From Dokdonella koreensis DS-123 (GTDB lineage Bacteria; Pseudomonadota; Gammaproteobacteria; Xanthomonadales; Rhodanobacteraceae): a stretch of DNA of 64,000 nt. Position 1 is the first letter of the stretch; every line of letters begins with the position of its first letter. Location of the stretch: NCBI RefSeq assembly GCF_001632775.1, contig NZ_CP015249.1, positions 2,770,686-2,834,685 of the forward strand, in the 5' to 3' direction. Made by a program: the position numbers and the translations under genes. The notes below the pieces were generated by a model. The model worked only from the letters and a program-made list of their open reading frames with translations, had not been told where the DNA came from and searched no databases. This document shows, piece by piece, positions 19,291 to 64,000 of the stretch.

Positions 19291-22164
19291 ATGCATTTCG
19301 ATCTACCTAAGAAGGCGATCTTCGCCTTGCTGGCGCTCGTTTGGCTCGTCGCCGGCAGCGTCCACGCGGCGCCCGACACGCGCGCCTTCTGGCTCGACGC
19401 CCAGGCCCGGCCGCTGGCCGCGCAAGCGCCCCGCCCCGCCAGCTACCGCGCCCTGCAGCTGGACGTCGCGGGCATCCGGGCCGCGCTGGCGGCCCCCGGT
19501 GCCACGCTGGCGCTGCCGCACCCGACCGGCGGCTTCACCGAGTTCACGCTGGCCGACTCGGGCACGATGCCGCCCGAACTGGCCGCCCGCTATCCGGAAA
19601 TCCGCAGCTACGTCGGCGTCGACGGCCGCGGCAACCGCGCGCGTATCGACATCTCGCCGCTCGGCGTCAACGCGATGGTGTTCGAGCGCAGCAGCGGCAA
19701 CGGCATCTGGGTGGTGCGACCGGACATGCCCGGCGAAGGCAGCGACTACCTGAGCTTCTACCGCAAGGAGCTGGCCGTGCCCGAAGGCATGTTCAGCTGC
19801 GGCGTGCATGCCGAGATCGATCCGTCCGGCCAGAGCCTGATCGATCCGGAGCCCACCACCGAGACCGGCATCGCCCGCCGCACCTACCGGGCCGCGGTCG
19901 CGGCCAACCGGCAGTACACCAATGCCGTCGGCGGCGGCACCGTGGCCGGCGGCCTGGCGGCCGTGGTCGTCGCGATGAACCGCGTCAACGAAGTCTACGA
20001 GAACGACTTCTCGGTCCACATGACCCTGATCGCCAACAACGACACGATCATCTACACCAACGAGAACCCGGGCCCGTACAGCAACAGCGGCGCGGCGATC
20101 GACCAGAACCAGAGCAACCTGGACAGCGTGATCGGCAGCGCCAACTACGACATCGGCCACGTGTTCACGACCGGCAGCGGCGGCATCGCCGGCCTCGGCG
20201 TGGTCTGCCGCAACGGCCAGAAGGCGCTCGGCACCACCGGCCTGGGCAGCCCGCTCGGCGACGTCTTCTACATCGACTACGTCGCCCACGAGATGGGCCA
20301 CCAGTTCGGCGGCAACCACACCTTCAACGCCACCACCAACAGCTGCGGCGGCGGCAACCGCGCGGCGTCGGCCGCCTACGAGCCGGGCAGCGGATCGACG
20401 ATCCAGGCCTATGCCGGCATCTGCGGCACGCAGAACCTGCAATCCAACTCCGATGCCTACTTCCACGCCGAAAGCCTGCGCGAGATGGGCAACTACATCA
20501 GCGCCGGCGTCGGTTCCTCGTGCGCGGTCAGCGTGCCGAACCCGAATACGCCGCCGGTCGTGAACGTCCAGGCCGCCCGCACGATCCCGGCCAACACGCC
20601 GTTCGAGCTGGCCGGCTCGGCCAGCGGCGCCGGCGCCGGCGCGACCTACACCTGGGAGCAGTACGACCGCGGCGCGGTCAACAACAACTTCAACGTCGAT
20701 CCCGGCACCGGCCCGATCATCCGCTCGCTGCTGCCGGCGACGTCGCCCCACCGCTTCGTTCCGCGCATGGACCAGCTGGTCGCCGGCACGACGCTGCGCG
20801 GCGAGATCCTGCCGACCACCAACCGCACGCTGACCTTCCGCCTGACCGCGCGCGACAACGCCAACGGCGGCGGCACCACCGGCAGCGCCGACGTCGTCCA
20901 CACCGTCGTCGCCACGGCCGGACCGTTCACGGTCGCAGGCCCGGCCGCCGGCAGCACCTGGAACTACCTCGACGGCGCCGGCACCGCCAGCGTGACCTGG
21001 AACGTCGCCAACACCGACGTACCGCCGGTGGCCTGCTCCAATGTCGACATCGACCTGTCCCGCGACGGCGGCCTGACCTATCCGGTGTCGCTCGCGCTCA
21101 ACGTGCCGAACAGCGGCAGCGCCACGGTGCCGGTACCGAACGAGATGACCGCCCAGGCCCGCGTCAAGGTGCGCTGCGCGAACAACATCTTCTTCAACAT
21201 CTCGCCGGGCAACTTCACGATCGCCGGTGGCAGCGACGACCTGTTCGCCGACGGCTTCGACGGCGAGGGCGGTACGGTGCCGCCGACGCTGGCCAAGGCG
21301 TTCTCGCCCGATACCGTCGCGACCGGCGCCGCCAGCACGCTGACGATCACGCTGGCCAACGCCAATGCGACCGCGGCGACGCTGACCGCGGCGCTGACCG
21401 ATACGTTCCCGACCGGCCTGGTCGTAGCCACCCCGCCGGCCGCCTCGACGACCTGCGGCGGTACGCTGGGTGCCGTCGCCGGCACCGGCTCGGTCAGCCT
21501 GGGCAGCGGTGCGACGATCCCGGCGGGCGCGTCCTGCACCGTCGTCGTGAACGTCCAGTCCGCCGTGGCCGGCAGCTACGAGAACACGCTCGCCGCCGGC
21601 GCGCTGCAGACCGACCTCGGCGCCAACGCGGCACCGGCGACCGCCACCCTGACGGTGACCGAGGAGACCGGCGCCTGCCCGGCCCAGTTGCTGCAGGACC
21701 CCGGCTTCGAGGCCACCGAGGACGACGGCGGCGACAACCCGTTCTGGGCCTCCAGCACGACGCAGGGCGACTCCACGTTCTGGAGCCCGCTCGGCGGCGC
21801 CACCGTGCACGCAGGCTCGTGGACCGCCTGGTTCGGCGGCTACGGCACCGTGACCACCGAGACCCACGAGTTCTCGCAGACCGTGACGATCCCGGCCAGC
21901 GGCGCGGCCACGCTCAAGTACTGGCGGCGGATCGACCGCACCGGCACCAACAGCAACGTCGTCACCTTCACCGTCGACGGCACCGTGGTCCGCACCGAGA
22001 ACCTCGTCACCCTCGGCACCTCCGGCTGGACCGAGCAGAGCATCGACCTGTCCACCTATGCCGACGGCCAGCCGCACCTGGTCAAGGTCAGCTACACCCA
22101 CAGCGGCGGCGGCCAGGACGCGAACTACTTCATCGACGACGTCACGCTCGACTGCAGCCCCTGA
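19291..22164 (+). CDS. Large secreted zinc metalloprotease (metzincin, reprolysin-like) with C-terminal DUF11-type and carbohydrate-binding-like domains
   Basis: 957 residues. A signal peptide (LLALVWLVAGSVHA, cut near 26) leads into a propeptide-like region and a catalytic domain with HEMGHQFGGNH at 333-343, the HExxHxxGxxH zinc motif of metzincins. A following AYAGICGTQN segment matches related bacterial proteases, but the residue expected to be Met in the Met-turn is Gln372. After a beta-rich region (430-645) comes LFADGFDG (651-658), the [IL]F-x-D-G-F-[ED] motif, then a DUF11-like domain with Cys pairs and a C-terminal jelly-roll-like segment (QLLQDPGFEATEDDG to FIDDVTLDC). It is probably exported and degrades protein outside the cell. 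It stands alone, with a strong terminator 73 bp after the stop. Confidence 0.88.
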   Translation: MHFDLPKKAIFALLALVWLVAGSVHAAPDTRAFWLDAQARPLAAQAPRPASYRALQLDVAGIRAALAAPGATLALPHPTGGFTEFTLADSGTMPPELAARYPEIRSYVGVDGRGNRARIDISPLGVNAMVFERSSGNGIWVVRPDMPGEGSDYLSFYRKELAVPEGMFSCGVHAEIDPSGQSLIDPEPTTETGIARRTYRAAVAANRQYTNAVGGGTVAGGLAAVVVAMNRVNEVYENDFSVHMTLIANNDTIIYTNENPGPYSNSGAAIDQNQSNLDSVIGSANYDIGHVFTTGSGGIAGLGVVCRNGQKALGTTGLGSPLGDVFYIDYVAHEMGHQFGGNHTFNATTNSCGGGNRAASAAYEPGSGSTIQAYAGICGTQNLQSNSDAYFHAESLREMGNYISAGVGSSCAVSVPNPNTPPVVNVQAARTIPANTPFELAGSASGAGAGATYTWEQYDRGAVNNNFNVDPGTGPIIRSLLPATSPHRFVPRMDQLVAGTTLRGEILPTTNRTLTFRLTARDNANGGGTTGSADVVHTVVATAGPFTVAGPAAGSTWNYLDGAGTASVTWNVANTDVPPVACSNVDIDLSRDGGLTYPVSLALNVPNSGSATVPVPNEMTAQARVKVRCANNIFFNISPGNFTIAGGSDDLFADGFDGEGGTVPPTLAKAFSPDTVATGAASTLTITLANANATAATLTAALTDTFPTGLVVATPPAASTTCGGTLGAVAGTGSVSLGSGATIPAGASCTVVVNVQSAVAGSYENTLAAGALQTDLGANAAPATATLTVTEETGACPAQLLQDPGFEATEDDGGDNPFWASSTTQGDSTFWSPLGGATVHAGSWTAWFGGYGTVTTETHEFSQTVTIPASGAATLKYWRRIDRTGTNSNVVTFTVDGTVVRTENLVTLGTSGWTEQSIDLSTYADGQPHLVKVSYTHSGGGQDANYFIDDVTLDCSP

Positions 22165-22236
22165 CGCCGGCCGGGTCCACGCGACCTCGCCACACCCGGG
22201 CAGCGGCCTTCACCGGCCGCTGCGCCGGACCGGAAC

Positions 22237-22263
22237 GAGGCGGGGTTTCCCCGCCTCTTTTTT
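22237..22263 (+). terminator. Rho-independent terminator after the metalloprotease
   Basis: GAGGCGGGG pairs perfectly with CCCCGCCTC over a TTT loop (22237-22257) and is followed by six T (22258-22263). A second hairpin, CAGCGGCC/GGCCGCTG, precedes it at 22201-22222. Confidence 0.92.
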
Positions 22264-22377
22264 GGCGCTTCGCCCATTTCCAGGGTCATTGGGCTCTTGC
22301 TCCTGCTTTGGATTTGGCCCTTGGCTTTTTCGCCCTAAAGCAAGCCGAGCATCGCAGGGTGGCGAGGCCGCAGAGGC

Positions 22378-22407
22378 GCCCCGTGTCTGAGCGAAGCGAG
22401 TTGGGGC
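22378..22407 (+). repeat. 30-bp identical core, arm A
   Basis: Identical, in inverted orientation, to 22811-22840. It starts GCCCCGTGTCTGAGCG and ends AGTTGGGGC, and its ends pair to close a stem-loop with the flanking bases. Confidence 0.9.
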
Positions 22408-22810
22408 GCCGTGCCTCGTCGCCCGAGAAGCGCAGGGGACCGAGCCGGCGTAGCCGGATCGGCTTGCGCCGGGCGAGAGGGCTTTTGGTTCCTTTTGGCC
22501 CGTCAGAAAATGTCCGGGAGACATTTTTGACATCGCGTCAGCGATGGCCCGGAGGGCGGCGGCCAGGGATGGCTGCCGCAAAAGGGACTCGGCCGCGCAG
22601 CGGACGAAAGCTCTTGATGTTGCTCCTGCTTTGCTCCGTGCCGGCAATCCCTCAAAAGCCACGGCACAAGCTAAGAGCAACAGCTTCCGCACGCTGCGCG
22701 CGCGGGTCACTTTTGTCTTGGCAAAAGTAACCAAAACCGTGGTCGCCGGCGCGAGCCGGCACGGCTGCGCCGTGCCGGTCCCCTGCGCTTCTCGGCCGGC
22801 CAGGCACGCT

Positions 22811-22840
22811 GCCCCAACTCGCTTCGCTCAGACACGGGGC
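22811..22840 (-). repeat. 30-bp identical core, arm B
   Basis: Reverse complement of 22378-22407, without a mismatch over 30 bp. The flanking bases differ from arm A but keep their own pairing. Confidence 0.9.
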
Positions 22841-22887
22841 AGCTCTGCGGCCTGGCCGACCTGCGATGCTCGGCTCGCTTTAGGCGC

Positions 22888-22942
<55 letters not shown>

Positions 22943-23088
22943 AGCAGCGACTGCGACGAAAGCGGCAGCTGATGGGTTCCCGCGAATGGGCAAGAACCTT
23001 TTTTCGATGCGAACCACGCGCCGGTGCCGGCGCATCCATGGCCGGAGTCATGCACAATCGCCCGGATCGTTTCGAAGGAGAGTGCCCG

Positions 23089-24273
23089 ATGCGTACCCTG
23101 ATCGCCCTGACCGCGCTGGCGCTGGCCGGCTGCGGTGCGCGCCCGACCGGCGGCGGCGAGGCGGCCGCGGCCCCTGTCGCCTCGCCGAACTGGCCGGCCA
23201 CGCCGGCCACCGAAACGCTCACCAGCGAGAAGGGCCCGTTCCGGGTGACCGAACTGGTCACCGGCCTGGTCCATCCCTGGAGCCTGGCCTTCCTGCCCGA
23301 TGGCCGCATGCTGGTCACCGAGCGACCGGGACGCCTGCGCATCATCGGCAACGGCGCGGTGTCGGCGCCGCTGGCCGGCGTGCCGGCGGTCTACGGCGAG
23401 GGCCAGGGCGGCCTGCTCGACGTGGCGGTCTCGCCGCAGTTCGCCGAGGACCGGCTGGTCTACCTGTCCTACGCCGAGGCCGACGGCGACAACGCCGGCA
23501 CGGCCGTCGCGCGCGCGCGCCTGGAAGGCGATGCGCTGCAAGGGCTGACCGTCATCTACCGGCAGTCGCCGAAGCTCTCCCAGGGCGCGCATTTCGGCTC
23601 GCGGCTGGTGTTCGACGACCAGGGTTTTCTGTTCGTCACCCAGGGCGAGCACAACAAGCGCGCGATGGCGCAGGACCTGGACAAGCTGCAAGGCAAGCTG
23701 GTGCGGCTGCGGCCGGACGGCAGCGTGCCCGACGACAACCCGTTCGTCGGCCGCCCGTATGCCCGTCCCGCGATCTGGTCGTATGGCCATCGCAACATGC
23801 AGGGCGCCGCGCTGCACCCGGTCACGCGCGCGCTGTGGACCAGCGAGCACGGCCCGCGCGGCGGTGACGAGCTCAACATCCCGCAGGCAGGCAGGAACTA
23901 CGGCTGGCCGATCATCACCTACGGCATCAACTATTCGGGCCTGCCGATTCCCGAGGCCAAGGGCGAGGCGGCCGATGGCCTGGAGCAGCCGCTGCACTAC
24001 TGGAAGGTCTCGCCCGGGCTGAGCGGCATGGCGTTCCTGGCCGACGGCGGATCGGCCTGGAACGGCAACCTGTTCCTCGGCGCGCTGGCGACCCGCGAGC
24101 TGATCCGCCTCGAACTCGACGGCGACCGCGTCGCCCACGAGGAACGCCTGCTCACGGCACGCAAGTGGCGCATCCGCGACGTGCGCCAGGGACCGGATGG
24201 AAAGCTGTACGTCCTGACCGACGAGGACGACGGCCGGCTGCTGCGTATCGACCCACCCGGAAGCACGCCTTGA
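23089..24273 (+). CDS. PQQ-dependent aldose sugar dehydrogenase-like lipoprotein
   Basis: 394 residues. A lipoprotein signal, MRTLIALTALALAGC with lipobox LAGC, places it in the periplasm or outer membrane. The mature part is a six-bladed beta-propeller of the soluble glucose/aldose dehydrogenase type (YliI-like): HPWSLAFLPDGRMLVTERPGRLRII, GEGQGGLLDVAV, SYGHRNMQGAALHP, TSEHGPRGGDELNI, NYGWPIITYGINYSG. These enzymes oxidise sugars with PQQ and calcium. The ATG at 23089 has GAAGGAG 7 bp upstream. No PQQ synthesis gene is in the window. Confidence 0.88.
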   Translation: MRTLIALTALALAGCGARPTGGGEAAAAPVASPNWPATPATETLTSEKGPFRVTELVTGLVHPWSLAFLPDGRMLVTERPGRLRIIGNGAVSAPLAGVPAVYGEGQGGLLDVAVSPQFAEDRLVYLSYAEADGDNAGTAVARARLEGDALQGLTVIYRQSPKLSQGAHFGSRLVFDDQGFLFVTQGEHNKRAMAQDLDKLQGKLVRLRPDGSVPDDNPFVGRPYARPAIWSYGHRNMQGAALHPVTRALWTSEHGPRGGDELNIPQAGRNYGWPIITYGINYSGLPIPEAKGEAADGLEQPLHYWKVSPGLSGMAFLADGGSAWNGNLFLGALATRELIRLELDGDRVAHEERLLTARKWRIRDVRQGPDGKLYVLTDEDDGRLLRIDPPGSTP

Positions 24274-24310
24274 CGCGGACGTCATCGTCGCCCTGCGGCC
24301 GGACGTCCGC

Positions 24311-25573
24311 ATGACGGCCCGGCTTGCGATCGTCGGCGGCGGGCCGGCCGGCCTGATGGCCGCCGAAGCCGCCGTCGCCCACGGCATCCGGGTGGACCTG
24401 TACGAACGCATGGGCTCGGTCGGGCGCAAGTTCCTGCTGGCCGGCAAGGGCGGGCTCAACCTGACGCATTCGGATCCGCGCGGACGCTTCGACGCGCGCT
24501 ACGGCGCGCGCAGCGGCGAGATCGGCCGCTGGCTCGACGCGTTCGACGCCGATGCGCTGCGCGCCTGGGCACGGGCGCTCGGCGTGGAAACCTTCGTCGG
24601 CAGCTCCGGACGCGTCTTCCCGGCCGATCTCAAGGCCGCCCCGCTGCTGCGCGCCTGGCTGCGCCGCCTGCGCGCCGCCGGCGTCGGCTTCCATGTCCAT
24701 CACCGCTGGCTCGGCTGGGACGCCGATGGCGGCCTGCGGTTCGAGACGCCGCAGGGCGAGACCACGATCACCACCGACGCCGTCGTCCTCGCGCTCGGTG
24801 GCGGCAGCTGGCCGATCCTCGGTTCCGACGGGGCCTGGGTCCCCCTGCTCGAACGACGCGGTATCGCGGTCGCCGACCTGGCACCGGCCAACTGCGGCTT
24901 CGACGTGGACTGGTCGGCGCATTTCTCGACGCGCCATGCCGGCGCGCCGCTCAAGCCGGTCGCGCTCCTGTGGCACGCCCCCGACGGCACGGCGCAGCGC
25001 CTGCAGGGCGAGTGCGTGATCACGGCCGGCGGCATCGAGGGCAGTCTGGTCTATGCGCTCTCGGCGCTGCTGCGCGACACGATCGCCGCGCGTGGGGAAG
25101 CGACGATCGCACTGGACCTGGCGCCCGGACGCGACCAGGCACGTCTGGCGCATGACCTGGCCCGTCCGCGCGGGGCGCGCTCGCTGGCCGAGCACCTGCG
25201 GCGCCAGGCCGGCATCACCGGCGTCAAGGCCGGCCTGCTGCGCGAGCGGCTCGACGCGGACGCGCTGCAGGATCCGCAACGGATCGCCGCGGCGATCAAG
25301 CGGCTGCCGCTGACGCTGCGCCGGCCGCGGCCGCTCGCCGAAGCGATCAGCACCGCCGGCGGCGTGCGCCTGGAGGATCTCGACGGGAACCTGATGCTGC
25401 AGCGCCTGCCCGGCGTGTTCTGCGCCGGCGAGATGCTCGACTGGGAAGCGCCGACCGGCGGCTACCTGCTGACCGCGTGCTTCGCCAGCGGGCATCTCGC
25501 CGGCGAAGGCGCCGCCCGCTGGCTCGGCCCGTCTGCCCGGCCGATCGGCGAGCCGTCCGTTTCGTCTCCCTGA
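24311..25573 (+). CDS. FAD-dependent flavoprotein of the HI0933/BaiN-like family (TIGR03862)
   Basis: 420 residues with the FAD-binding Rossmann motif RLAIVGGGPAGLMAAEAAV at the start and LYERMGSVGRKFLLAGKGGLNLTHSD, the family's defining segment. ALGGGSWPILGSDGAWV and a C-terminal FCAGEMLDWEAPTGGYLLTACFASGHLAG (second flavin contact) agree. The reaction is not defined for this subgroup; relatives include bile-acid oxidoreductase BaiN and uncharacterised flavoproteins. It follows the aldose dehydrogenase by 37 bp. Confidence 0.85.
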   Translation: MTARLAIVGGGPAGLMAAEAAVAHGIRVDLYERMGSVGRKFLLAGKGGLNLTHSDPRGRFDARYGARSGEIGRWLDAFDADALRAWARALGVETFVGSSGRVFPADLKAAPLLRAWLRRLRAAGVGFHVHHRWLGWDADGGLRFETPQGETTITTDAVVLALGGGSWPILGSDGAWVPLLERRGIAVADLAPANCGFDVDWSAHFSTRHAGAPLKPVALLWHAPDGTAQRLQGECVITAGGIEGSLVYALSALLRDTIAARGEATIALDLAPGRDQARLAHDLARPRGARSLAEHLRRQAGITGVKAGLLRERLDADALQDPQRIAAAIKRLPLTLRRPRPLAEAISTAGGVRLEDLDGNLMLQRLPGVFCAGEMLDWEAPTGGYLLTACFASGHLAGEGAARWLGPSARPIGEPSVSSP

Positions 25574-25692
25574 AGAATTCGCCTCCCTGAAGAACCCGCC
25601 GCGCGCAGGGCCGATGCGGCCCGGCGAGGTCGACATTTCTCCGACCGCGGCCAGGGCACGATGCGCCGCCCTGCCCGGCTGCGGATCTGCTC

Positions 25693-27255
25693 GTGTCGAC
25701 CTCCCCTGCCACGCCGACGACGTCGCGGGCGCGCCCCGCCATTGCCTGGATCGCGGCGATCGCCGTGGTGATGGCGTTTGCGTTCCTCGGCAGCCGCGGC
25801 ATCTGGGATCCGGACGAGGGGCGCTACACCAACGTCGCGCTGAACATGCTCGACAGCGGCGATTGGCTGAACCCGCAGCGTACCGACGATACCGGCCACT
25901 GGACCAAGCCGCCGCTGACCTATTGGCTGATCGCCGCCAGCGTCGCCGCGTTCGGCCAGAATCCCTGGGCGGCGCGCCTGCCGATCGCGCTCTCCTATCT
26001 GGCGTGCGTGTATCTGGTCTGGCGCCTGGGGCGGCGCCTGCTGCCGGGCAGCGAATCCACCGCCGCGACGATCTACGCCACCCTGCTGCTGCCGCTCGGC
26101 GCGGCCCAGCTGATCACGACGGACTTTCCGCTGACGGCACTGCAGACATTGGCGGTGACGGCCTTCGTCGAGGCGCGTTTCGGTCAGGGGCGGGCCTACG
26201 GATGGCTGGCCCTGATGTGGCTCGCGTTCGCGCTGGCCTTCCTGACCAAGGGTCCCCCGGGCCTGCTGCCGCTGCTGGCGATCGTCGTCTACCAGTTCCT
26301 GCTTCCGCAGCCCGGCGGCCGCCGCGTGCTCAGCATCAGCGGCCTGGTGATCTTCGTCGTGGTCGCCCTGCCCTGGTTCGTCGCCGTCACCACGCGCCAC
26401 GCCGGCCTGCTCGACTACTTCGTGGGCGCCGAGATCGCCGGGCGCATCGCCAGCCCCGACTTCGGCCGCCACCCGGAATGGTATGGCTGGCTGCAGATCT
26501 ATGCACCGACCCTGGTCCTGGGGTCGCTGCCGTGGACGGGCACCCTGTGGCGCTGGGTGAGGACGCTGCCGGCCGACCTGCGCCGCTGGCGCGATCCCGC
26601 CGTCCGTCGCGAACAGGCGCCGTTGCTGCTGCTGACGGTGTGGGTACTGGTACCGCTGCTGGTCTTCTGCATCGCGCGATCACGCCTGCCGCTGTACCTG
26701 TTGCCGCTGTTCGGCCCGCTGGCGCTGCTGGCGGCACGGCAACGGCACCGCGACGGCGCAGCCCGGCCGCTCGGCGCCTGGCTGGCGGGATGGGTCCTGC
26801 TGGCCCTGGTGCTGAAGGCCGCGGCCGCGTACTGGCCGACGCACAAGGACGCTTCGGTGTGGGCCGCGGCGATCCGCGAACGGGCACCGGTCCCGGTCAC
26901 CGAGATCGTGTTCGTCGAGGACATGGCCCGCTACGGCATCCATCTGCACCTGGATGCCGAGGTCGAGAAGATCTCGCTGCAGCCGATCGACGGACCGCGC
27001 TTCAATCCCGAGTACGACGAAGACCTGGCGACCGAACTGCGCGAAAGCGAAGGCGAGCCCGGCGCGATCTGGATCGCCAAGAGCGAACGGCTGGCCCAGA
27101 TCCGGGCGGCGATCGACGCGAACGGCCATGTCCTCGAACCGCTCGGAACGCCGTTCCGGGGACGCACGCTGTTCACGGTGCACCGGAAAGGCGCCGCGCC
27201 CGCGGCGGCGCCGGGCGCGGATCCCGCCGCAGCGGACCGCGACGGCCGTCAGTAG
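25693..27255 (+). CDS. Glycosyltransferase family 39 (ArnT-like) membrane protein
   Basis: 520 residues, GTG start at 25693. About eleven hydrophobic segments alternate with loops. The first periplasmic loop has the family motif WDPDEGRYTNVALNMLDSGDWLNP (38-61, acidic pair Asp41/Glu42), then TGHWTKPPLTYWLIA (67-81). Members transfer a sugar from a polyprenyl-phosphate donor to lipid A or protein; ArnT adds aminoarabinose to lipid A. The exact donor and acceptor are not visible. It converges with the acyltransferase gene, overlapping it by 7 bp at the 3' ends; that gene and waaA are also lipid A/LPS genes, which favours an LPS role. Confidence 0.85.
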   Translation: MSTSPATPTTSRARPAIAWIAAIAVVMAFAFLGSRGIWDPDEGRYTNVALNMLDSGDWLNPQRTDDTGHWTKPPLTYWLIAASVAAFGQNPWAARLPIALSYLACVYLVWRLGRRLLPGSESTAATIYATLLLPLGAAQLITTDFPLTALQTLAVTAFVEARFGQGRAYGWLALMWLAFALAFLTKGPPGLLPLLAIVVYQFLLPQPGGRRVLSISGLVIFVVVALPWFVAVTTRHAGLLDYFVGAEIAGRIASPDFGRHPEWYGWLQIYAPTLVLGSLPWTGTLWRWVRTLPADLRRWRDPAVRREQAPLLLLTVWVLVPLLVFCIARSRLPLYLLPLFGPLALLAARQRHRDGAARPLGAWLAGWVLLALVLKAAAAYWPTHKDASVWAAAIRERAPVPVTEIVFVEDMARYGIHLHLDAEVEKISLQPIDGPRFNPEYDEDLATELRESEGEPGAIWIAKSERLAQIRAAIDANGHVLEPLGTPFRGRTLFTVHRKGAAPAAAPGADPAAADRDGRQ

Positions 27256-28169: not shown

Positions 28170-28269
28170 CCGTGCCGATTATGGCGGCGCGGCGCCGCCC
28201 GGCATAGCATGGCCGTGCTCGCGCACCGCTGCGCCGGCCTCGCGGCTGGGGAGCCGCACCCGCAGCCGA

Positions 28270-28275: not shown

Positions 28276-28301
28276 CGCCCTCCGCCGAACGCCCGCCGCC
28301 C

Positions 28302-38666: not shown

Positions 38667-39617
38667 TCACCGGTCCGGTTCGAAGTCGCCGGCGAAGATG
38701 CGCTCGCGCAGCAGCCCGACGTCGGCGAGCACGGCCCGATCCAGCGCCGAGAGGTCATAGCGCGTTCCGCGGTAGAAGACGACGCCGTTCATCAGCTGGT
38801 CGATCAGGCCGCCGGCGCCGCGCAGCACGGCGTCCGCCGACGGCGGCGCGTCGATCGACATCGGCAACCCGCACGCCGCAATCGGCACCGGCGCACCACC
38901 GGCCCAGCGCACCGGGGCCGGCACGGCCGCTGGCCGGCCGGTCCGCAGCACCGGGTTGGCCCAGTGCGTGTTGTTACCGGTGGTCAGGTCGGGCGCCACG
39001 CCCCAGGCCTGCGTCGCCGCCGGGCCGGCGAACAGCGTCGGCGCGCCCGGCATCATCCAGCGATCGAACGTGGACCAGTAGGTGGCCGGCGGTTGGCCGG
39101 TGGTGAGGTCGGCCCAGCCGTTGTAGGCCAGCACGTGGCCGAGCTCGTGCAGCGCGACGCTGAAGGCATCGGTGCGGTTGGCCGGCACCGGCGCGATGCG
39201 CAGGACTGGGTCCGGATCGAACCACAGCTCGTTGCGCAGGTAGTTGAGGCCGAACGTCACGATGCCGTCGGCGTCGGCGCCGTTCACGTCGACACCGGTG
39301 CGCAGCTTGTGTGCCGCCCCCTGCTCGAACGTGTCGCGCCCGCCGAAGACGCCGACGAAGGCCGTGGCGGCACTGGCGCCGTTGGCGGTAGGGACATCGG
39401 CGATCGCCACGCGGATCGCGATCGTGACCGGCGCGGTCGCGCCGAGCGCCTGCGACCAGCGCCGCCCGGCTTCCCGCAGGTGGGTGGCGACCGCGGCCCG
39501 CTCCGCCGGCTGCAGTACATCGGCACTGGGGTCGAACGTGATGTCGAAGGTGGCTTGCGCCGCCGCCGGGCCGGTGGCCGCGGCCACCAGCGCGAACAGT
39601 ATCGGGACACGGTGCAT
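38667..39617 (-). CDS. Secreted HExxH metallopeptidase with C-terminal IF-x-x-x-F-E motif
   Basis: 316 residues. A signal peptide (MHRVPILFALVAAATGPAAAQA) is followed by a beta-rich domain and ALHELGHVLAYNGW, an HExxH zinc site. The PPSADAVLRGAGGLIDQLMNG region and LSALDRAVLADVGL near the end resemble matrixin-like bacterial proteases. The chain ends LLRERIFAGDFEPDR, a near match to the [IL]F-x-D-G-F-[ED] motif with the G and D exchanged. It is probably exported. Family-level assignment only; the third zinc ligand is not obvious. Confidence 0.72.
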   Translation of the reverse strand: MHRVPILFALVAAATGPAAAQATFDITFDPSADVLQPAERAAVATHLREAGRRWSQALGATAPVTIAIRVAIADVPTANGASAATAFVGVFGGRDTFEQGAAHKLRTGVDVNGADADGIVTFGLNYLRNELWFDPDPVLRIAPVPANRTDAFSVALHELGHVLAYNGWADLTTGQPPATYWSTFDRWMMPGAPTLFAGPAATQAWGVAPDLTTGNNTHWANPVLRTGRPAAVPAPVRWAGGAPVPIAACGLPMSIDAPPSADAVLRGAGGLIDQLMNGVVFYRGTRYDLSALDRAVLADVGLLRERIFAGDFEPDR

Positions 39618-55374: not shown

Positions 55375-55699
55375 AGGGGACGGCCGGCGGTGGGAGGGCC
55401 GGCCATCTTAGAGCCTGCCGCGGGCAGTGAGCCGGCGCGGAACGGATCCGGCCCGGCGATCCGGCCCGCCGCGGCCCGCCGGGCGCCGTGCCAGGGGCCT
55501 TCCCGCCGCCGTCCGGCCCGGCCGCGCCGCCGGTCCGGCCCCGGCTGCCCGTCCCGGACCGGAAGGCGCCCCGGCCCGCCTCGGAATCGGCGGCATGCGC
55601 CAAAGTGCCATCCCCGATCCGGAGCGGCCACCGCGTTTGCCGCCGCCTCGCGGATTGGGCAAGCTACGCGCTGCCTTCCATTGAAGAAGAACGGTCTCC
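55375..55699. other. Gap before lptD
   Basis: 325 bp between divergent genes. A CTGCC/GGCAG hairpin lies near 55412-55427 with no T run. No gene or clear promoter is evident. Confidence 0.4.
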
Positions 55700-57988: not shown

Positions 57989-58037
57989 CCGGCCGGCCCG
58001 ACACCGCCGACCGCGCCGGCTGAAACGGGCCGGCGTC

Positions 58038-60362
58038 ATGGCCCGCCGCTACCGCTTCGGCGGCTTCCGCCTCGACCCGGCCACGCGCGAGCTGTGGCAG
58101 GACGATCGCCCGGTGGTGCTGCCGCCACGCCTGTTCGAGTGCCTGCTCTGGCTGATCGAGCATCGCGACCGCGCGGTCGGTCGCGACGAGCTCATCGCCG
58201 CCGTCTGGGGCCGCAGCGCCGTCACCGACAACGTGCTCGCACAGGTCGTCGCGCGGCTGCGCCGCGTGGTCGACGCCGACGCTCGCGACAGCGCGATCCG
58301 CACCGTGCCGCGCTTCGGCTACCGCTGGGTCGCCGCCACCACCGTCGAATCCGCCGCCGCGCCCGGCGCCGCCGGACCACCGGCCGGCACCGGGCGCCAG
58401 CGGCGCGGCCGCCGATGGCGAGCCGTCGCGCTCGGCGGCCTGGCCGTACTGCTGCTCGCCGTGTCGATCGCATGGCTGCGGGTTCCCGTAGCGCAGCGCG
58501 CCGACGCGGCAGCGCGCCCGGCCGCGGTGCTGCCGGTCGAGCGCGTCGCCGGCGCCGGCGAGGAGTGGATGCGCCTGGGCCTGATGGCGCTGGTCGGCGA
58601 CCGGCTGCGCGACGCCGGCCAGCCGGTGGTGCCGGACGAGAGCGTGGTGGCGATCGTCGGCGATGCCGCGCCCGATCCCGCCGCCGTCGCCGCCGCGCTG
58701 GCCGGCGCGGTACCGCCGCTGCTGATCGCCGCGCGCGTCGAGGCCACCGAAGGCGGCTGGCGCGTCCGGCTGCAGGCGGTCGGCGAGCCGGACCTCGTGA
58801 GCGTCGGCGACGGCGCCGACCTGCTGGCCGCCGCGCGCGCCGCCAGTGACGGCCTGGCCGTGCGGCTCGGCCACGCACCGGCCGGCGCCGCGCCCGGGCC
58901 CGCCGCGTTCGAGCGGCTGCTGCTGGAAGTGGAGGCCGCCACCCTGGCCGGCGAGACCGAAGCCGCCCTGCGCCTGCTGGACACGGCCGACGCGCGCCAG
59001 CGCGAGACGCCCGAGTGGCGCTACCGCGCCGCCTGGACCGCCTTCGTCGCCGGCCGGCTGGACCCGGCCGAAGCCGGCTTCGCCGCCCTGCTCGAAGACC
59101 TGCCGGCCGACGCACCGGTCATGCGCGCACGCGCGCTCAACGGCCTGGCCAACGTGCAGTACGAGCGCGAGGACCTCACCGGCCTCGCGCGCAGTGCCGA
59201 GCAGGCCGTCGCGCTGCTGCGCGGGCACGACGCGCCGGGCGAGCTGGGCCGCGCCTTGATGGGCCAGGCCGTCGCCGCCCACCGTCAGGGCCGGACCGAG
59301 GCCGCGCGGCAGGGTTTCTTCCAGGCGCGCCTCGCACTCGAGCGGGCCGGCGACCCGCTCGGCGTCGCGCGTGCCAACCTGTCGCTCGGCATCGTCGACG
59401 CGCGGCAAGGCCGCCTGCCGGACGCGCTGGTGCTGTTGCAGGACGCCGCGCAACGGCTGGCCGCCCTGCGCAGCGCCCACGACGAGTTGCTGGCGCATGT
59501 CCACGTCGCGCACGTGCATCTGCTGCTGCTGGACCCGGCCGCCGCGCTGGCCCAGGCCGAGCCGATCGCCCGCCTCGGCGGGCGTGTCCGCTCGCCGCGC
59601 GCGCAGGTGCTGGCCGACCTGACCCGCGCCGAGGTGCTGCTGGCCAATGGCCGGCTCGACGCCGCCGGCGAACTGCTGCGGCGCTGGTGCGCGACCGGCT
59701 GCGACGGCCCGGAGCGCCTGCCGTTGGCGCTGGCGCGACGGGCGCTCGGCGGCGACATCGATGCGACCCTGCCCGACCTGCGGACCGCGCTGGCAGGCCT
59801 GCCCGCCGGCGAAGGCGGGCGCGATGCCGGCCGGGCCTGGCTCGCCGTGCTCGCGGCACGGCGGACGGGCGGCGCCGGCGGCGCCGCGATCGCCGGCCTG
59901 CGCGCCTGGGCCGGCGATGCCCCCGCGGCGACCGCCGAAGTCCGCCTCTATGCCGCGCTCGCTGAAGCCGAGTACGCCGCCGGCCAAGGCCGTCCGGCCG
60001 GCGATGCCTACGCAGCCGCCTGGCGCGAAGCGCTCGCCGGCGCGGTGCCGAGCGACTTGCTCGAGGTCGCGGATGCCTACGTCGGCTGGCTGATCCGGCA
60101 AGGCGATCTCGCCGGTGCCAGCCACGTCGCCGGCCACCTGGCCGGCTGGGCCGGGCGCGACTTCGGCAGTGCCCTGCTGCAGCTGCGCCTGCGCCACGCG
60201 CTCGGCCATCCGGCCGCCTGGCGCGCCGCCCTGGCGCAGGCCCGCGCGCTGGCCGGCGAGCGCCCGATTCCCGCCGCCCTGCAGGTCGAGCCGACAGCTC
60301 CTGCCATCGGCACCACGCCCGATCCGGCCCAGGAAGGACCCGGCCTGCTCGGCGACGGATGA
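58038..60362 (+). CDS. CadC/ToxR-like membrane transcriptional regulator with TPR-like periplasmic region
   Basis: 774 residues. An N-terminal OmpR/PhoB-type winged helix (1-100; YRFGGFRLDPATRELWQDDRPVVLPPRLFECLLWLIEHRDRAVGRDELIAAVWGRSAVTDNVLAQVVARLRR) is followed by a basic linker, a single membrane span (about 128-148) and a large periplasmic region. From about 280 to 700 it consists of Ala-rich paired helices like TPR repeats. Such proteins sense an external signal and act on DNA from the membrane. The signal is unknown. It starts 49 bp after lptD, and the exported kelch gene follows on the same strand, so it could regulate it; that is inference. Confidence 0.85.
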   Translation: MARRYRFGGFRLDPATRELWQDDRPVVLPPRLFECLLWLIEHRDRAVGRDELIAAVWGRSAVTDNVLAQVVARLRRVVDADARDSAIRTVPRFGYRWVAATTVESAAAPGAAGPPAGTGRQRRGRRWRAVALGGLAVLLLAVSIAWLRVPVAQRADAAARPAAVLPVERVAGAGEEWMRLGLMALVGDRLRDAGQPVVPDESVVAIVGDAAPDPAAVAAALAGAVPPLLIAARVEATEGGWRVRLQAVGEPDLVSVGDGADLLAAARAASDGLAVRLGHAPAGAAPGPAAFERLLLEVEAATLAGETEAALRLLDTADARQRETPEWRYRAAWTAFVAGRLDPAEAGFAALLEDLPADAPVMRARALNGLANVQYEREDLTGLARSAEQAVALLRGHDAPGELGRALMGQAVAAHRQGRTEAARQGFFQARLALERAGDPLGVARANLSLGIVDARQGRLPDALVLLQDAAQRLAALRSAHDELLAHVHVAHVHLLLLDPAAALAQAEPIARLGGRVRSPRAQVLADLTRAEVLLANGRLDAAGELLRRWCATGCDGPERLPLALARRALGGDIDATLPDLRTALAGLPAGEGGRDAGRAWLAVLAARRTGGAGGAAIAGLRAWAGDAPAATAEVRLYAALAEAEYAAGQGRPAGDAYAAAWREALAGAVPSDLLEVADAYVGWLIRQGDLAGASHVAGHLAGWAGRDFGSALLQLRLRHALGHPAAWRAALAQARALAGERPIPAALQVEPTAPAIGTTPDPAQEGPGLLGDG

Positions 60363-60502
60363 CTCGTCCGGCCCGTCCGAACAAGGGCTTGCAGGCGATG
60401 ACACGGCAATCTCATCGTTTCCGATCGAAACCGGAAGGCGGGCTCCGCGGCCGACCGGTACAACCGGCCGGCCTTCCCGTCCTTTCCGAGGAGATCTGCC
60501 CG

Positions 60503-61669
60503 ATGCGTCCGTTCCTTCCTTCGTGCCGCGGGGCGGCACCGCGCCTGCTGGCCGCCGCCGCGTTCGCGCTCGGCGGCGCCTTCGCCCAGGCCGGCAGCTT
60601 CTCGGTGGTCGGCGACATGGTGGTACCGCGTGACCACCACACCGCCACCGCCCTGCCCGACGGCCGCGTGCTGATCGCCGGCGGCGTCCGTCACAACCCC
60701 GGCGGGCCGACCGCCGAGGCCGAGCTGTTCGATCCGAAGACCGGCACCTTCGCCGCCACCGGCAACATGACGGTGCCGCGCGTGGACCATGCCGCCGCCC
60801 TGCTGCCGGACGGGCGCGTGCTGGTCGTCGGCGGCTACGGCGCCGAGGAAACGCAGGCCAATGCCGAGCTCTACGACCCGGCCAGCGGCAGCTTCACCGC
60901 GGTCGCCAGCGGCAGCGCCGTCGGCGGCGAGCGCACGGCGGCCATCACCCTGGCCGACGGCCGCGTGCTGGTCGCGGGCGGCTTCAACATGGGCGCGCGT
61001 GCCACCGCCTTCGTGTTCGACCCGGCCACCGGCAGCTTCAGCCCGACCGGCAGCCTCGGCGCCGCTCGCTACGTCCACACGATGACGTTGCTCGCCGACG
61101 GCCGCGTGCTGGTCACCGGCGGCATGGCCAACGGCATCCTCGCCAGCGCCGAACTCTACGATCCGGTCGCCGGCAGCTTCACGCCCACCGGCACGCTGTC
61201 GATCCCGCGCGAGCGCCACGCCGCTGCGCGCCTGCCGGACGGCCGCGTGCTGATCGCCGGCGGCTACACGCTCGAGGGCGAGCAGCAGGAAACCGCCGAG
61301 ATCTTCGATCCGGCCGCCGGCACGTTCAGCGCCGCCGCCGACATGACGATGGCACGCATCGACTTCGCGCTGGTCCCGCTCGCCGACGGTGACGTATTGG
61401 CGGTCGGCAGCTATCGCTGGGCGCTGGAGGCCGCCACCGCCGAGCGCTTCGTCGCCGGGGACGACCGGTTCGAGGCGATCGTGCCGGGCCCGGCCACCGA
61501 GCGTGCCGGCCTGGCGGCCACGCGCCTCCCGGACGGCCGCGTGCTGCTGACCGGCGGCACCGACCTGATGAACGAAGAAGGCGGCCTGACCCCCTACGGC
61601 GAGCTCTACGACCCGGCCGGCGGCGTCGATCCGATCTTCAGCGACGGCTTCGAGAACCCCACGCCCTGA
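60503..61669 (+). CDS. Exported kelch-repeat protein with C-terminal IFSDGFE motif
   Basis: 388 residues. A signal peptide (CRGAAPRLLAAAAFALGGAFAQA) is followed by seven kelch blades of about 50 residues, each with a form of LPDGRVLIAGG (LADGRVLVTGG, LPDGRVLLTGG); the sixth is degenerate (LADGDVLAVGS). The chain ends DPIFSDGFENPTP, the [IL]F-x-D-G-F-[ED] motif close to the stop. No catalytic site is known. I choose ATG 60503 with GAGGAG upstream, since the longer in-frame start overlaps the regulator gene and adds unconserved sequence. Confidence 0.85.
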   Translation: MRPFLPSCRGAAPRLLAAAAFALGGAFAQAGSFSVVGDMVVPRDHHTATALPDGRVLIAGGVRHNPGGPTAEAELFDPKTGTFAATGNMTVPRVDHAAALLPDGRVLVVGGYGAEETQANAELYDPASGSFTAVASGSAVGGERTAAITLADGRVLVAGGFNMGARATAFVFDPATGSFSPTGSLGAARYVHTMTLLADGRVLVTGGMANGILASAELYDPVAGSFTPTGTLSIPRERHAAARLPDGRVLIAGGYTLEGEQQETAEIFDPAAGTFSAAADMTMARIDFALVPLADGDVLAVGSYRWALEAATAERFVAGDDRFEAIVPGPATERAGLAATRLPDGRVLLTGGTDLMNEEGGLTPYGELYDPAGGVDPIFSDGFENPTP

Positions 61670-61865
61670 CCGCCGGACCGTTCCGCGGCCGGCGCGGCCA
61701 CCGGCAGCCTGCATCGCCGCGACCCACGCCGCAGGCGAGGCTTGCGCCAACCCCGTCGTACCCCACCGGTCCCGCGCTTCGCCGGCGCGGGACCGTATCG
61801 CCGGCCCGCACCGGCGCCGCGCACGGCCGCGTCCGGTTCTTCCCGGAAGCGGCCGCCGGACCGGC

Positions 61866-64000
61866 TCACTCGCCGTCGAAACCGTCGCGGAACAGCACCT
61901 CGGACACGGTGTACAGCGTCGTCGTGCCGCTGATCTCGCTGGCCACGGCGATCATCGCCTCGCCGGTCGGGCTGTCGGCCGCCGGGATGAACACGATGCC
62001 TTCCGGACCGATGTCGCCGGCCGCATCCGGCGCGACGTCCAGGTCCAGCACGACGCCGAAGTCGCGCTTGTTGATGTAGCCGGCGAACGTCGCCGCGTAC
62101 GGATCGGTCACGTCGAACACGGCGATGCCGCTGATCCGCTCCAGGCCGACGAAGGCATAGGTGCGCCCGTTCGGCAGCGTGCCGACCGCGAGCGCTTCGG
62201 GCTCCGGGCCCTTGTTGTCGCTGCGCGTGTCGAAGCTCTGGTTCGCCTCGTTGTCGGCGTTGAAGTCCGCCGGGTGGCGCGCGGCGGTGACCTGCTCGAG
62301 GATGTCGCCCGAATCGAACACGAGGTTGCCGTACTGGTCCCAGATCGCCATCGAGCGGCTGCCCAGGATCTGCAGGCGGTCGAAGTCGCCGTCGCCGTCC
62401 AGGTCGCCGTCGATCGTCGAGGCGTTGAGACGGCCGAGCTGCGCATTGGATTGCAGCGCCGCCGCATCCGGGAACACGCCCGGATCGAGGTCGAGATCGG
62501 CGATGCGCGCCACCTCGCCGCGGTCGTCGCCCTCGCCGGCACTGGCGTAGAAGGTCTTGCCGCCGGCGCTGAAGGCCGCGATCGAATCGGGCATGTGCAT
62601 GCCGAACACCGGCCAGGTGCGGATGTTGATCGCCGGACCGTCGCGGTCGGACGCATCCAGGCCACTGGGCACGTCGAAGCTGACCAGGCCCAGTTGGATC
62701 GGCGTCGGCTCCGCGTCGAGCGGCACGCTGCCGTTCGGCGGGATCGGCAGCGGCTGCGGCGCCACGCCGAAGTCGTTGTCGTTGATCAGCGCCAGGCGCC
62801 CGTCCGGCAGCACCGCCAGGCCTTCGAGCTTGTCGCCCTGGTGGTAACCCAGCGACGGCAGATTGGCCACCTTGACCTTGGCCACCGCGCGGATGCCCGC
62901 CGTCACCAGGTCGTCCGGCGTGTGCTGCTCCAGCGTCTTGCCCGGCAGCAGGGCCGGCGCGCCGGCCGCACGCAGGTTGGTCGCGCCGGCCAGCGTGAAC
63001 TCGAACAGCAGCTTCTTGCCGCTGCGCTCGACCGAATCGTCGCGCTCCACGATCACGAAGCGACCATCGCCGGCATAGGCGGCGTCGCCGATCTTGTCGG
63101 TGTTCTGCTCGCGGAAGGCGGTCTTGTCGATCAGGTAGACGTACTCGGCCACCGTCTCGCCGCTGGCCGGGTCGATGCCGACCATGCGGATCACCTTCGA
63201 TGCGTTGCTCGCCGCCGTGTTCGGGTTGGCCAGCGGCGTCTGGATGAAGGCGTAGAGCAGGCCGCTGTCGGTGTCGAGGGCCATGCCCTCGAAGCCGCGA
63301 TTGGGACGGCGCGTGGAATACTCGGCCGGCAGCGTCTCGCGGCCGTAGTGGCCGGCCGGCTGGCCGCCGAGCGCACCGGTGCCGGCCGGCACCAGGCGGT
63401 CGAGCAGGCGGCCGCCCGCGTCGAAGTGGTAGATCGCCGGGCGGTACTCGTCGACCATCCAGTAGCTGCCGTCCGGCGCCACCACCAGGCCCTCGATGTC
63501 CGCGCCGAGCGGGTCCAGCGGCAGCGGATTGCCGTTGAGGTCCACCGGCGGCTCGTCGATGCCGTTGCCGATGTTGGGCAGGCCGGTCAGCGGCGTGGTG
63601 CCGTCGGCCTTGAACAGCATCAGCTGCGCGCCCAGCGCGATCGCACCGGTGGCCGGGTCGAACGTGAAGCGGACGATGCGCGGCTGGTAGCCCGGCAGCA
63701 CGAACGGCCGCTCCAGCGTGCCGTCGCCGTTGACGTCGGTCGGCTCGCCGTTCGGGCCGCGATCCGGCACGGTGACGAACTTCATCAGGCCGGTGGCCGC
63801 GTCCACGCCCTCGAACCACAGCCCCGAGAAGCCGCCGAGGCGGATCGTCTGGCCGGCCGGCGTGGTGCCGAGCACCGGCAGCTGCGGGAAATCGTGCGTT
63901 TCCACGCGCGGCAGGCCGCGGCCGTGGTTCTTGAGGCCGGCCGCGACGATGTCGAGCACCGTGCCCCCGGCCAGGTCGATCACCGCGAAGGCGTTGGCCT
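61866..64000 (-). CDS. Large exported esterase-like/phytase and choice-of-anchor I-type protein (partial, N-terminus off the right edge)
   Basis: At least 711 residues, ending in a stop at 61866. The first visible residues, ANAFAVIDLAGGTVLDIVAAGLKNHGR, show that the protein continues past the edge. IRLGGFSGLWFEGVDAATGLMKFVTVPDRGPNGEPTDVNGDGTLERPFVLPGYQPRIV, PDGSYWMVDEYRPAIYHFD, NRGFEGMALDTDSGLLYAFIQTPL are the esterase-like activity of phytase part; DSIAAFSAGGKTFYASAGEGDDRGEVARI, NLVFDSGDILEQVTAARHPADFNADNEANQSFDTRSDNKGPEPEALAVGTLPNGRTYAFVGLERISGIAVFDVTDPYA matches the choice-of-anchor I alkaline-phosphatase-like domain. It ends VLFRDGFDGE, the same C-terminal motif. It probably acts on phosphate esters outside the cell; substrate unproven. 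Confidence 0.85.
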   Translation of the reverse strand, partial: ANAFAVIDLAGGTVLDIVAAGLKNHGRGLPRVETHDFPQLPVLGTTPAGQTIRLGGFSGLWFEGVDAATGLMKFVTVPDRGPNGEPTDVNGDGTLERPFVLPGYQPRIVRFTFDPATGAIALGAQLMLFKADGTTPLTGLPNIGNGIDEPPVDLNGNPLPLDPLGADIEGLVVAPDGSYWMVDEYRPAIYHFDAGGRLLDRLVPAGTGALGGQPAGHYGRETLPAEYSTRRPNRGFEGMALDTDSGLLYAFIQTPLANPNTAASNASKVIRMVGIDPASGETVAEYVYLIDKTAFREQNTDKIGDAAYAGDGRFVIVERDDSVERSGKKLLFEFTLAGATNLRAAGAPALLPGKTLEQHTPDDLVTAGIRAVAKVKVANLPSLGYHQGDKLEGLAVLPDGRLALINDNDFGVAPQPLPIPPNGSVPLDAEPTPIQLGLVSFDVPSGLDASDRDGPAINIRTWPVFGMHMPDSIAAFSAGGKTFYASAGEGDDRGEVARIADLDLDPGVFPDAAALQSNAQLGRLNASTIDGDLDGDGDFDRLQILGSRSMAIWDQYGNLVFDSGDILEQVTAARHPADFNADNEANQSFDTRSDNKGPEPEALAVGTLPNGRTYAFVGLERISGIAVFDVTDPYAATFAGYINKRDFGVVLDLDVAPDAAGDIGPEGIVFIPAADSPTGEAMIAVASEISGTTTLYTVSEVLFRDGFDGE

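What the first reader, a model, noticed from the sequence alone, without database searches (positions are those of the whole stretch)
19291..64000. A shared [IL]F-x-D-G-F-[ED] motif in four unrelated exported proteins
Four secreted proteins of different families carry the same short motif. It is C-terminal in three: IFSDGFENPTP (kelch, 61669 end), LFRDGFDGE (esterase-like, 61866 end) and IFAGDFEPDR (HExxH protease, 38667 end, G and D exchanged). In the 957-residue metzincin LFADGFDG is internal (651-658), with two domains after it. The motif has no transmembrane helix or basic cluster after it, so it does not look like PEP-CTERM, GlyGly-CTERM, LPXTG or a type IX signal. I infer a lineage-wide secretion, anchoring or processing tag, with the metzincin possibly having gained later domains. 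I cannot name a described signal that matches.
Basis: partly seen in the sequence, partly recalled or inferred. Interest (0 to 1): 0.75.

Follow-up and report, generated by a model that had tools for sequence, protein, structure and literature searches.

The report
Lineage-wide address tag on exported proteins
Dozens of unrelated exported proteins in this bacterium and its relatives carry the same short tag, usually at the very end, which looks like an undescribed address label for moving proteins to the cell surface or out of the cell, possibly through a second type II secretion system.

Summary
The window is from a Dokdonella-like genome (Lysobacterales). FxDGF[DE] occurs 65 times in it, against 1 for the reversed-pattern control. 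54 of 64 in-gene instances lie within 15 residues of the C-terminus; the 54 proteins fall in 23 single-linkage families. 47 of 50 score as exported, against 94 of 187 random genes.

The core is [ILV]-F-x-[DN]-G-F-[DE], with an acidic residue three before the F in most groups (not f4), then usually 0-6 residues. It also occurs right after signal peptides, between domains, and in tandem. Two models place it past the folded part. Tagged families are ones that carry PEP-CTERM, myxosortase, rhombosortase or type IX signals elsewhere. No model shown, and no paper search, described it.

In the genomes read, true tags occur only in Lysobacterales, patchily. The best partner found is a second type II secretion system (GspC-D-E, 'clade A'): in 70 of 79 tag-rich genomes and 44 of 220 others. 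Independent events are few and two groups disagree. I rate 'new sorting or secretion tag' very likely, 'linear address for that T2SS' plausible but unproven, a C-terminal cleavage signal less likely.

The parts
19291..22164 (+). 957-aa exported metzincin (Reprolysin domain, DUF7933) with an internal tag LFADGFD at 21241-21261
21241..21261 (+). internal tag (context GGSDDLFADGFDGEGG, acidic at -3), between the peptidase part and DUF7933
38667..39617 (-). 316-aa exported HExxH protein (weak match to NF038122 metallo_LGF and Matrixin, both under their cut-offs)
38679..38699 (-). variant C-terminal tag IFAGDFE (ERIFAGDFEPDR*, acidic at -3 kept)
58038..60362 (+). 774-aa CadC-like regulator: winged helix (Trans_reg_C), a predicted transmembrane helix, then a TPR part; directly upstream of the tagged kelch gene; one of a family that recurs beside tagged genes
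60503..61669 (+). 388-aa exported kelch-repeat protein with C-terminal tag (start as chosen by my gene caller; the longer ORF begins at 60359)
61634..61654 (+). C-terminal tag IFSDGFE (VDPIFSDGFENPTP*)
61866..64000 (-). exported Phytase-like / choice-of-anchor I protein with C-terminal tag; the gene begins beyond the window end (ATG at genome position 2835379 or 2835361)
61875..61895 (-). C-terminal tag LFRDGFD (SEVLFRDGFDGE*)

Best explanation
[ILV]Fx[DN]GF[DE], in most groups with an acidic residue at -3, is a short address tag that exported proteins of Lysobacterales display on a flexible tail or linker after Sec export. In the periplasm it is most likely bound as a peptide ligand by the outer-membrane export machinery, and the best candidate is the second type II secretion system (GspC-D-E 'clade A'), perhaps through the PDZ-like domain of its GspC. 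Shown here: the tag, its consensus, its link to signal peptides, its independence of fold, its absence from the genomes read outside the order, and its co-occurrence with clade-A GspD. Separate estimates: sorting/secretion/docking tag about 0.85; read by clade-A T2SS about 0.38.
For: 65 sites vs 1 control in the genome; 10 of 10 genomes of the genus have 29-65. 54 of 64 in-gene instances lie in the last 15 residues, expectation 2.7%. In 19 loci from 10 relatives (fetched at known sites), 23 of 25 sites end within 6 residues of the stop. In 75 C-terminal tails -1 is I/L/V in 73, +2 is D in 69, +3 is G in 72, -3 is D/E in 61 (F, F and final E/D were imposed by the pattern). Codons vary synonymously (G: GGC 39, GGT 13, GGG 6, GGA 6), so selection is on the peptide. 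Signal peptide: 47 of 50 vs 94 of 187. 54 tagged proteins include HAF, delta-60, S8, FG-GAP, kelch, choice-of-anchor J/Q/D families and matches to M36 models that NCBIfam splits into myxosortase-, rhombosortase- and T9SS-dependent. In the family of the 61866 protein, homologs elsewhere end in PEP-CTERM-like or T9SS-like tails, extra domains or nothing where Dokdonella has the tag. The tag lies past the last folded element in two unrelated models, pLDDT < 50 for all of it in the kelch model and for its last six residues in the other. Clade-A GspD: 70 of 79 tag-rich vs 44 of 220 other genomes, 29 of 30 vs 8 of 55 genera; at >= 95% completeness 10/10 vs 3/66 in f1 and 2/2 vs 0/76 in f2. The GspC beside it ends in a PDZ-like domain, by eye, in 14 of 14 tag-rich relatives read. 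Published work: GspC PDZ domains bind, or are needed for, some T2SS substrates (PMC7949064, PMC12369372; passages read).
Against: 27 genomes of one genus (f10 g31) have clade-A GspD but few FxDGF sites; 3 loci read in one of them held no tag, N/S variants are not raised in the six searched, and their GspC has the PDZ-like end too in 3 of 3. Two f8 genomes (G072, G106) have true tags but no clade-A GspD among the candidates scored. The f1 and f2 splits are about one event each on the tree of sampled GspDs, so the independent support is small although the raw table is extreme. Exosortase is also enriched in tag-rich genomes (17 of 32 vs 2 of 32), so co-loss of several surface traits is possible. 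Site counts are only a proxy: two Acidobacteria had 37 and 22 sites but no tag in the loci read. The PDZ matches of the own GspC are just under Pfam's cut-offs. No protein has been localised.
Confidence: 0.4

Rival explanations
1. A docking or anchoring tag: the protein leaves by an ordinary route (for example the Xps-like T2SS-B, the only kind found in the tag-poor f1 genomes sampled) and the tag then holds it on a surface receptor or matrix that was not identified here.
For: The tag sits at N-terminal, C-terminal and between-domain positions and in tandem, as docking peptides can; f8 genomes G072 and G106 have tags without clade-A GspD; the same protein families carry anchoring signals in other lineages.
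Against: No receptor candidate was found; of the few genes tested, clade-A GspD fits the distribution best.
Confidence: 0.32
2. A C-terminal processing signal cut by a dedicated protease or transpeptidase, as for PEP-CTERM, GlyGly-CTERM and MYXO-CTERM.
For: Short, C-terminal in 54 of 64 instances, lineage-wide and patchy, the same protein families as known CTERM systems; exosortase-like genes in 17 of 32 tag-rich vs 2 of 32 tag-poor genomes.
Against: No transmembrane helix or basic cluster follows; the tag also occurs straight after signal peptides and between domains, where a C-terminal cut would make no sense; the three genomes with most sites in the order sample (g12, 108-151) have no exosortase match.
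Confidence: 0.1
3. A structural element: the tag is the first strand of a jelly-roll (MAM/choice-of-anchor J-like) domain, either a relic of it or a donor strand that completes such a domain in a partner protein.
For: In L397 the tag runs straight into a stretch that starts IFADGFETGDTSAW and looks like such a domain by eye; choice_anch_J matches 5 of 54 tagged proteins.
Against: Most tags end the protein with no domain after them. No partner lacking a first strand was sought.
Confidence: 0.08
4. A feedback ligand: the TPR part of the CadC-like regulator encoded beside many tagged genes (periplasmic if the predicted membrane helix is right) binds the tag and adjusts expression of its own cargo.
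For: Regulator immediately upstream on the same strand of 15 of 58 C-terminally tagged genes, on either side of 18; TPR domains often bind short peptides (recalled).
Against: Tag-rich genomes G002, G012, G014 and G245 have no match to the regulator's TPR part among the 18 candidates scored in each.
Confidence: 0.05
5. Chance or base composition.
For: Composition and codon bias can raise such counts: two Acidobacteria had 37 and 22 sites without a tag in the loci read.
Against: 1 control site vs 65 in the own genome, 54 of 64 C-terminal, conserved -3 and -1.
Confidence: 0.01

Closest known systems
PEP-CTERM / exosortase (EpsH)
   Same: Short C-terminal signal on dozens of sequence-unrelated exported proteins, patchy in a lineage, shared cargo families (choice-of-anchor; HAF by recall).
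   Different: No transmembrane helix or basic tail; also N-terminal and internal; no exosortase match in 15 of 32 tag-rich genomes.
GlyGly-CTERM / rhombosortase and MYXO-CTERM / myxosortase
   Same: One signal serving many families; NCBIfam splits M36 proteases by these signals, and tagged proteins match those models. GlyGly-CTERM protease VesB goes through T2SS in Vibrio (PMC12369372, passages).
   Different: Those signals have a motif, a membrane helix and a basic end (PMC3237569, passages; for MYXO-CTERM the start of the abstract in the listing says tripartite); this one has only the motif.
Type IX secretion C-terminal domain (Bacteroidota)
   Same: A soluble C-terminal address read by an outer-membrane secretion machine; homologs of the 61866 protein carry tails of that look (by eye).
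   Different: The T9SS domain is a folded domain of about 70-100 residues (recalled); this tag is about 7-9 residues and the host is a proteobacterium.
Type II secretion substrates recognised by a GspC PDZ domain (PelI with OutC, VesB with EpsC)
   Same: Recognition of folded periplasmic cargo by a PDZ-bearing GspC (passages); clade-A GspC has T2SSC plus a PDZ-like end.
   Different: [quoted passage not shown] here one linear motif is shared by the tagged proteins.

Membership tests
PEP-CTERM and other CTERM signals (tripartite) | Signature motif followed by a transmembrane helix and a basic cluster at the C-terminus | tested here: not met
   0-13 residues follow the motif in the 54 own-genome C-terminal instances, mostly P/G/A
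PEP-CTERM and other CTERM signals (tripartite) | Match to a curated model of the signal | tested here: not met
   No CTERM signal model among the 25 families shown (of 41) for 54 tagged proteins at E <= 0.001, nor for the four window proteins at E <= 1
PEP-CTERM / exosortase | Every genome with the signal has an exosortase | tested here: not met
   PF09721 in 17 of 32 tag-rich genomes, in none of the three g12 genomes
GlyGly-CTERM / rhombosortase | Rhombosortase in the genome | not tested
LPXTG / sortase | LPXTG, membrane helix, basic tail | tested here: not met
   The tails listed hold no such arrangement
Type IX secretion | Folded C-terminal domain of the T9SS type | tested here: not met
   Tag lies past the fold at low confidence in two models; no T9SS sorting-domain model among the families shown (its T9SS-dependent M36 hits are M36 family models)
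Type II secretion cargo | Sec or Tat signal peptide | tested here: met
   47 of 50 vs 94 of 187 random genes by a crude start-tolerant test
Type II secretion cargo | A T2SS in the genome | tested here: met
   GspD over cut-off in 63 of 64 genomes searched, all 32 tag-rich ones included
Clade-A T2SS cargo | Tag and clade-A GspD occur together | tested here: inconclusive
   70/79 vs 44/220 genomes, but discordant in f8 and f10 g31, with few independent events
Clade-A T2SS cargo | Export lost when gspD-A or the tag is removed | not testable with these tools
   needs experiment

The most novel reading that the evidence does not exclude
The tag is the first general linear secretion signal of a type II secretion system: a peptide of seven to nine residues, usable at either end or between domains, that commits any folded protein in the periplasm to a dedicated second GspC-D-E outlet (clade A) in Lysobacterales, read by the PDZ-type GspC, while the Xps-like system of the same cell handles untagged cargo.
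Probability: 0.3. Interest if true: 0.93.

Novelty: new variant of a known kind. Interest (0 to 1): 0.8.

Why it matters
It marks at least 54 proteins in this genome, and 12-151 sites in each of 79 genomes of the order sample, as one class of exported protein. If the T2SS link holds, it makes a long-standing question testable: how type II secretion picks its cargo, for which the papers seen state that no common linear sequence or conserved signal is known (PMC7949064, PMC11981180; passages read). A short tag that could be moved between proteins would also be a useful export tool. Even without T2SS, it is a sorting tag outside the tripartite CTERM scheme.

Tried and rejected
Rejected: shared fold (23 single-linkage families; two models). 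Rejected as universal partner: exosortase (17 of 32 vs 2 of 32, in none of three g12 genomes) and the CadC-like TPR regulator (30 of 67 genomes, none in several tag-rich ones). PDZ in GspC-A as the sole discriminator: not supported, since tag-poor g31 has it too (3 of 3) and G263 has a PDZ-like end; G279 lacks it. N/S variants as the hidden tag of g31: not raised (2-8 sites in six genomes, control 2-3; loci not read); G106 in f8 has 19 vs 2. Tags outside the order: 271 non-order genomes of the class have 0-11 sites, and the 12 loci read from three high ones (G363, G359, G499) hold none on a credible protein. Of 30 named genomes outside the order, two Acidobacteria (37 and 22 sites) and a Steroidobacter MAG (15) have raised counts; 13 stretches of the first, 6 of the second and one site of the third showed no tag (which skipped frames with under 60 residues upstream). 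I recalled a longer C-terminal motif FESGDTSAW from other phyla; a paper search for it found nothing, and the nearest sequence met was L397. Paper searches for the motif letters and for a Lysobacterales sorting signal found nothing on it (one search was too broad to tell). Choices and rows dropped: I counted 15 weak f2 hits (426-543 bits, Xcs-like by my reading) as not clade A and two contig-edge fragments (G123, G237) as clade A; tag-rich means >= 12 sites. score only the best 18 and 4 candidates per genome, so absence means absent among these. In one search tails were chosen by F.[DNSG][GDS]F[ED], so those positions are fixed by choice. Gene calls are from my own simple script; it missed genes at several relatives' loci, so re-read those loci by open frame. 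Acidic -3 fails in f4 (0 of 10 sites within 6 residues of the stop) and holds in 1 of 3 in f6. Families f3, f7 and f12 were counted, but no true C-terminal tag of theirs was read.
Full report
The four motifs are at the stated places, and a six-frame scan of the window finds no fifth. The window lies at 2770686-2834685 of a single 4.45-Mb contig. The nearest named relatives of the 61866 protein are Dokdonella MAGs (75-89% identity), so this is Dokdonella or a near neighbour (Lysobacterales, Rhodanobacteraceae).

IT IS GENOME-WIDE. FxDGF[DE] as DNA pattern occurs 65 times in this genome; the pattern read backwards occurs once. 64 sites fall in genes called by my script. 54 of 64 lie within 15 residues of the C-terminus, against 2.7% for uniform placement, 42 of them with 1-4 residues after the motif. 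The 54 C-terminally tagged proteins fall in 23 single-linkage families. 47 of 50 with complete starts pass a start-tolerant signal-peptide test, against 94 of 187 random genes, 62 of which have no further membrane helix; two of the three failures look like signal peptides by eye.

THE MOTIF. In 75 C-terminal tails (this genome and relatives) position -1 is I, L or V in 73, +2 is D in 69, +3 is G in 72, and -3 is D or E in 61. In this genome -3 is acidic in 50 of 54 C-terminal and 8 of 10 internal instances, so the internal copy in the metzincin is probably a real tag; the G/D-exchanged copy at 38679 also keeps E at -3. A re-reading of 25 sites in 19 loci from relatives shows 23 within 6 residues of the stop; there -3 is acidic in all 8 of f1, in 1 of 1 of f5 and 1 of 3 of f6, but in 0 of 10 of f4 and 0 of 1 of f2 (residues read by eye). 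The core is therefore [ILV]FxDGF[DE], with the acidic -3 a feature of most but not all groups. D and G codons vary synonymously, so the peptide is what is kept.

IT IS NOT TIED TO THE C-TERMINUS. The motif sits right after the signal peptide in L069 (this genome, one of the ten internal instances), L121, L104, L237 and L403, and L397 has two copies there (signal peptides by eye). Tandem copies 10-13 residues apart occur in L399, L397, L398 and, with a variant, L095. In AlphaFold2 models of the 61866 protein (17-row alignment, mean pLDDT 82.7) and of the kelch protein (no alignment, 74.6) the tag lies past the folded part: in the kelch model residues 375-388 are all under 50; in the other a short helix runs to residue 697 and 700-705 are under 50. 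This is what a displayed binding peptide would look like, and it does not suit a cut-and-anchor signal.

THE CARGO IS SORTING-SIGNAL CARGO. Among 54 tagged proteins NCBIfam finds HAF repeats (6), delta-60 (5), choice-of-anchor J (5), Q (5) and D (3), and matches to M36 models split by NCBI as myxosortase- (4), rhombosortase- (3) and T9SS-dependent (2) (matches at E <= 0.001, not checked against the curated cut-offs; 25 of 41 families shown). Pfam adds S8 peptidases, FG-GAP, DUF4394, kelch and M14 (25 of 50 shown). In 77 homologs of the 61866 protein whose tails I could read, the three Dokdonella ones end in LFR[DN]GFD and a Lysobacterales MAG in IFNSSFEGDD; elsewhere the same place holds PEP-CTERM-like tails (L178, L183, L194, L201), T9SS-like tails (at least L134, L139, L157, L191), long extra domains, or nothing: 16 stop within 6 residues, not counting L175, which is cut by its contig end (tail labels by eye).

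DISTRIBUTION. 10 of 10 genomes of the genus have 29-65 sites. In 299 genomes of the order, 79 have 12 or more. In 271 other genomes of the class the range is 0-11. Reading loci confirmed C-terminal tags in f1, f2, f4, f5, f6, f8, f9, f10 and f11 and found none on a credible protein in 23 loci of six low-count genomes (G062, G246, G046, G363, G359, G499). Counts alone can mislead: two Acidobacteria with 37 and 22 sites, and a Steroidobacter MAG with 15, showed no tag in the stretches read (13, 6 and one site).

A CANDIDATE READER. All 64 genomes searched have GspD matches, 63 over the cut-off, but the tag-rich ones carry two kinds. A tree of 40 GspDs separates clade A from the Xps-like clade B with full support: all 10 tag-rich genomes sampled have both; the seven f1 and four of the six f2 tag-poor genomes have only B; the other two f2 genomes (G032, G070) have distant A-like forms, and tag-poor G053 (f10 g31) has A. 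A clade-A profile run on the same 299 genomes gives clade A in 70 of 79 tag-rich and 44 of 220 tag-poor genomes, and in 29 of 30 tag-rich against 8 of 55 tag-poor genera. At >= 95% completeness, clade A in tag-rich vs tag-poor: f1 10/10 vs 3/66; f2 2/2 vs 0/76; f9 16/18 vs 1/2; but f8 1/3 vs 1/14, and f10 7/7 vs 12/12. In this genome clade A is a gspC-gspD-gspE trio at 697267-701715, while clade B is a full Xps-like operon, gspE to gspN and gspD, at about 896-907 kb (gene letters beyond C, D and E of clade A and the D of clade B read by eye). GspC-A has the T2SSC domain and a PDZ-like end (PDZ_6 25.9 and PDZ_2 23.8 bits, both just under the cut-off of 27); by eye such an end is present in 14 of 14 tag-rich relatives, and also in 3 of 3 g31 genomes and G263.

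WHAT THAT IS WORTH. The raw association is extreme, but the f1 and f2 contrasts look like one event each on the tree; g31 has the machine without tags, and G072 and G106 have tags without the machine. Exosortase shows a weaker enrichment (17 of 32 vs 2 of 32), so co-loss of several surface traits is a live alternative. I commit to clade-A T2SS as the single likeliest reader at about 0.38, well below my confidence that this is a sorting or secretion tag (about 0.85).

KNOWN OR NEW. No CTERM signal model is among the NCBIfam families shown. Paper searches for the motif letters and for a Lysobacterales sorting signal found nothing on it. The closest published ideas are tripartite CTERM signals (PMC3237569, passages read) and PDZ-dependent recognition of T2SS cargo (PMC7949064 and PMC12369372, passages read). 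[quoted passage not shown] It is therefore a new variant of a known kind (a lineage-wide sorting tag), and it would be categorically new if it proves to be a linear T2SS address.

Noticed in passing
window 58038-60362; own-genome loci L034, L045, L048, L054, L055, L057, L061, L062, L065, L070, L073, L077 and others: A paralogous family of about 800-aa CadC-like regulators (winged helix, predicted membrane helix in 10 of 11 full-length ones, TPR part) sits directly upstream of tagged genes (15 of 58 same strand, 18 either side). 18-19 matches in this genome, G003, G283 and G285 (18 candidates scored per genome), none in several tag-rich relatives.
   Followed up: partly
L036, L041, L072 (own genome): ECF sigma factor plus Ser/Thr kinase pairs (named by eye) lie beside tagged genes, a second kind of dedicated regulation; a similar-looking pair lies near the clade-A gsp trio (703652-707192).
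   Followed up: no
L397, L398, L399, L095: Tags doubled in tandem 10-13 residues apart; in L397 the second copy leads into a jelly-roll-like stretch IFADGFETGDTSAW.
   Followed up: partly
G000:C1:684065-684574 (L253): A 169-aa exosortase-like protein (PF09721) about 13 kb from the clade-A gspCDE trio; its own targets were not sought.
   Followed up: no
f10 genus g31 (27 genomes, e.g. G046, G067, G113): Clade-A GspD with few FxDGF sites: either another signal or loss of the tag; a useful natural contrast.
   Followed up: partly
f8 genomes G072 and G106: True tags (G106 read with an FxSGFE C-terminus) but no clade-A GspD at E <= 1e-120.
   Followed up: partly
f4 genomes G012, G024, G050, G057: Tags end LFGDGFE*, IFADGFEGP* and the like without the acidic -3 seen elsewhere: 0 of 10 sites.
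   Followed up: partly
L034, L043, L038, L041, L062, L057: Runs of regulator or kinase, tagged protein, then a further large exported protein, two of these ending in tag-like variants (IFADGFGDGAR in L038, IWSDGFEPAP in L041), so true tag numbers are higher than counted.
   Followed up: no
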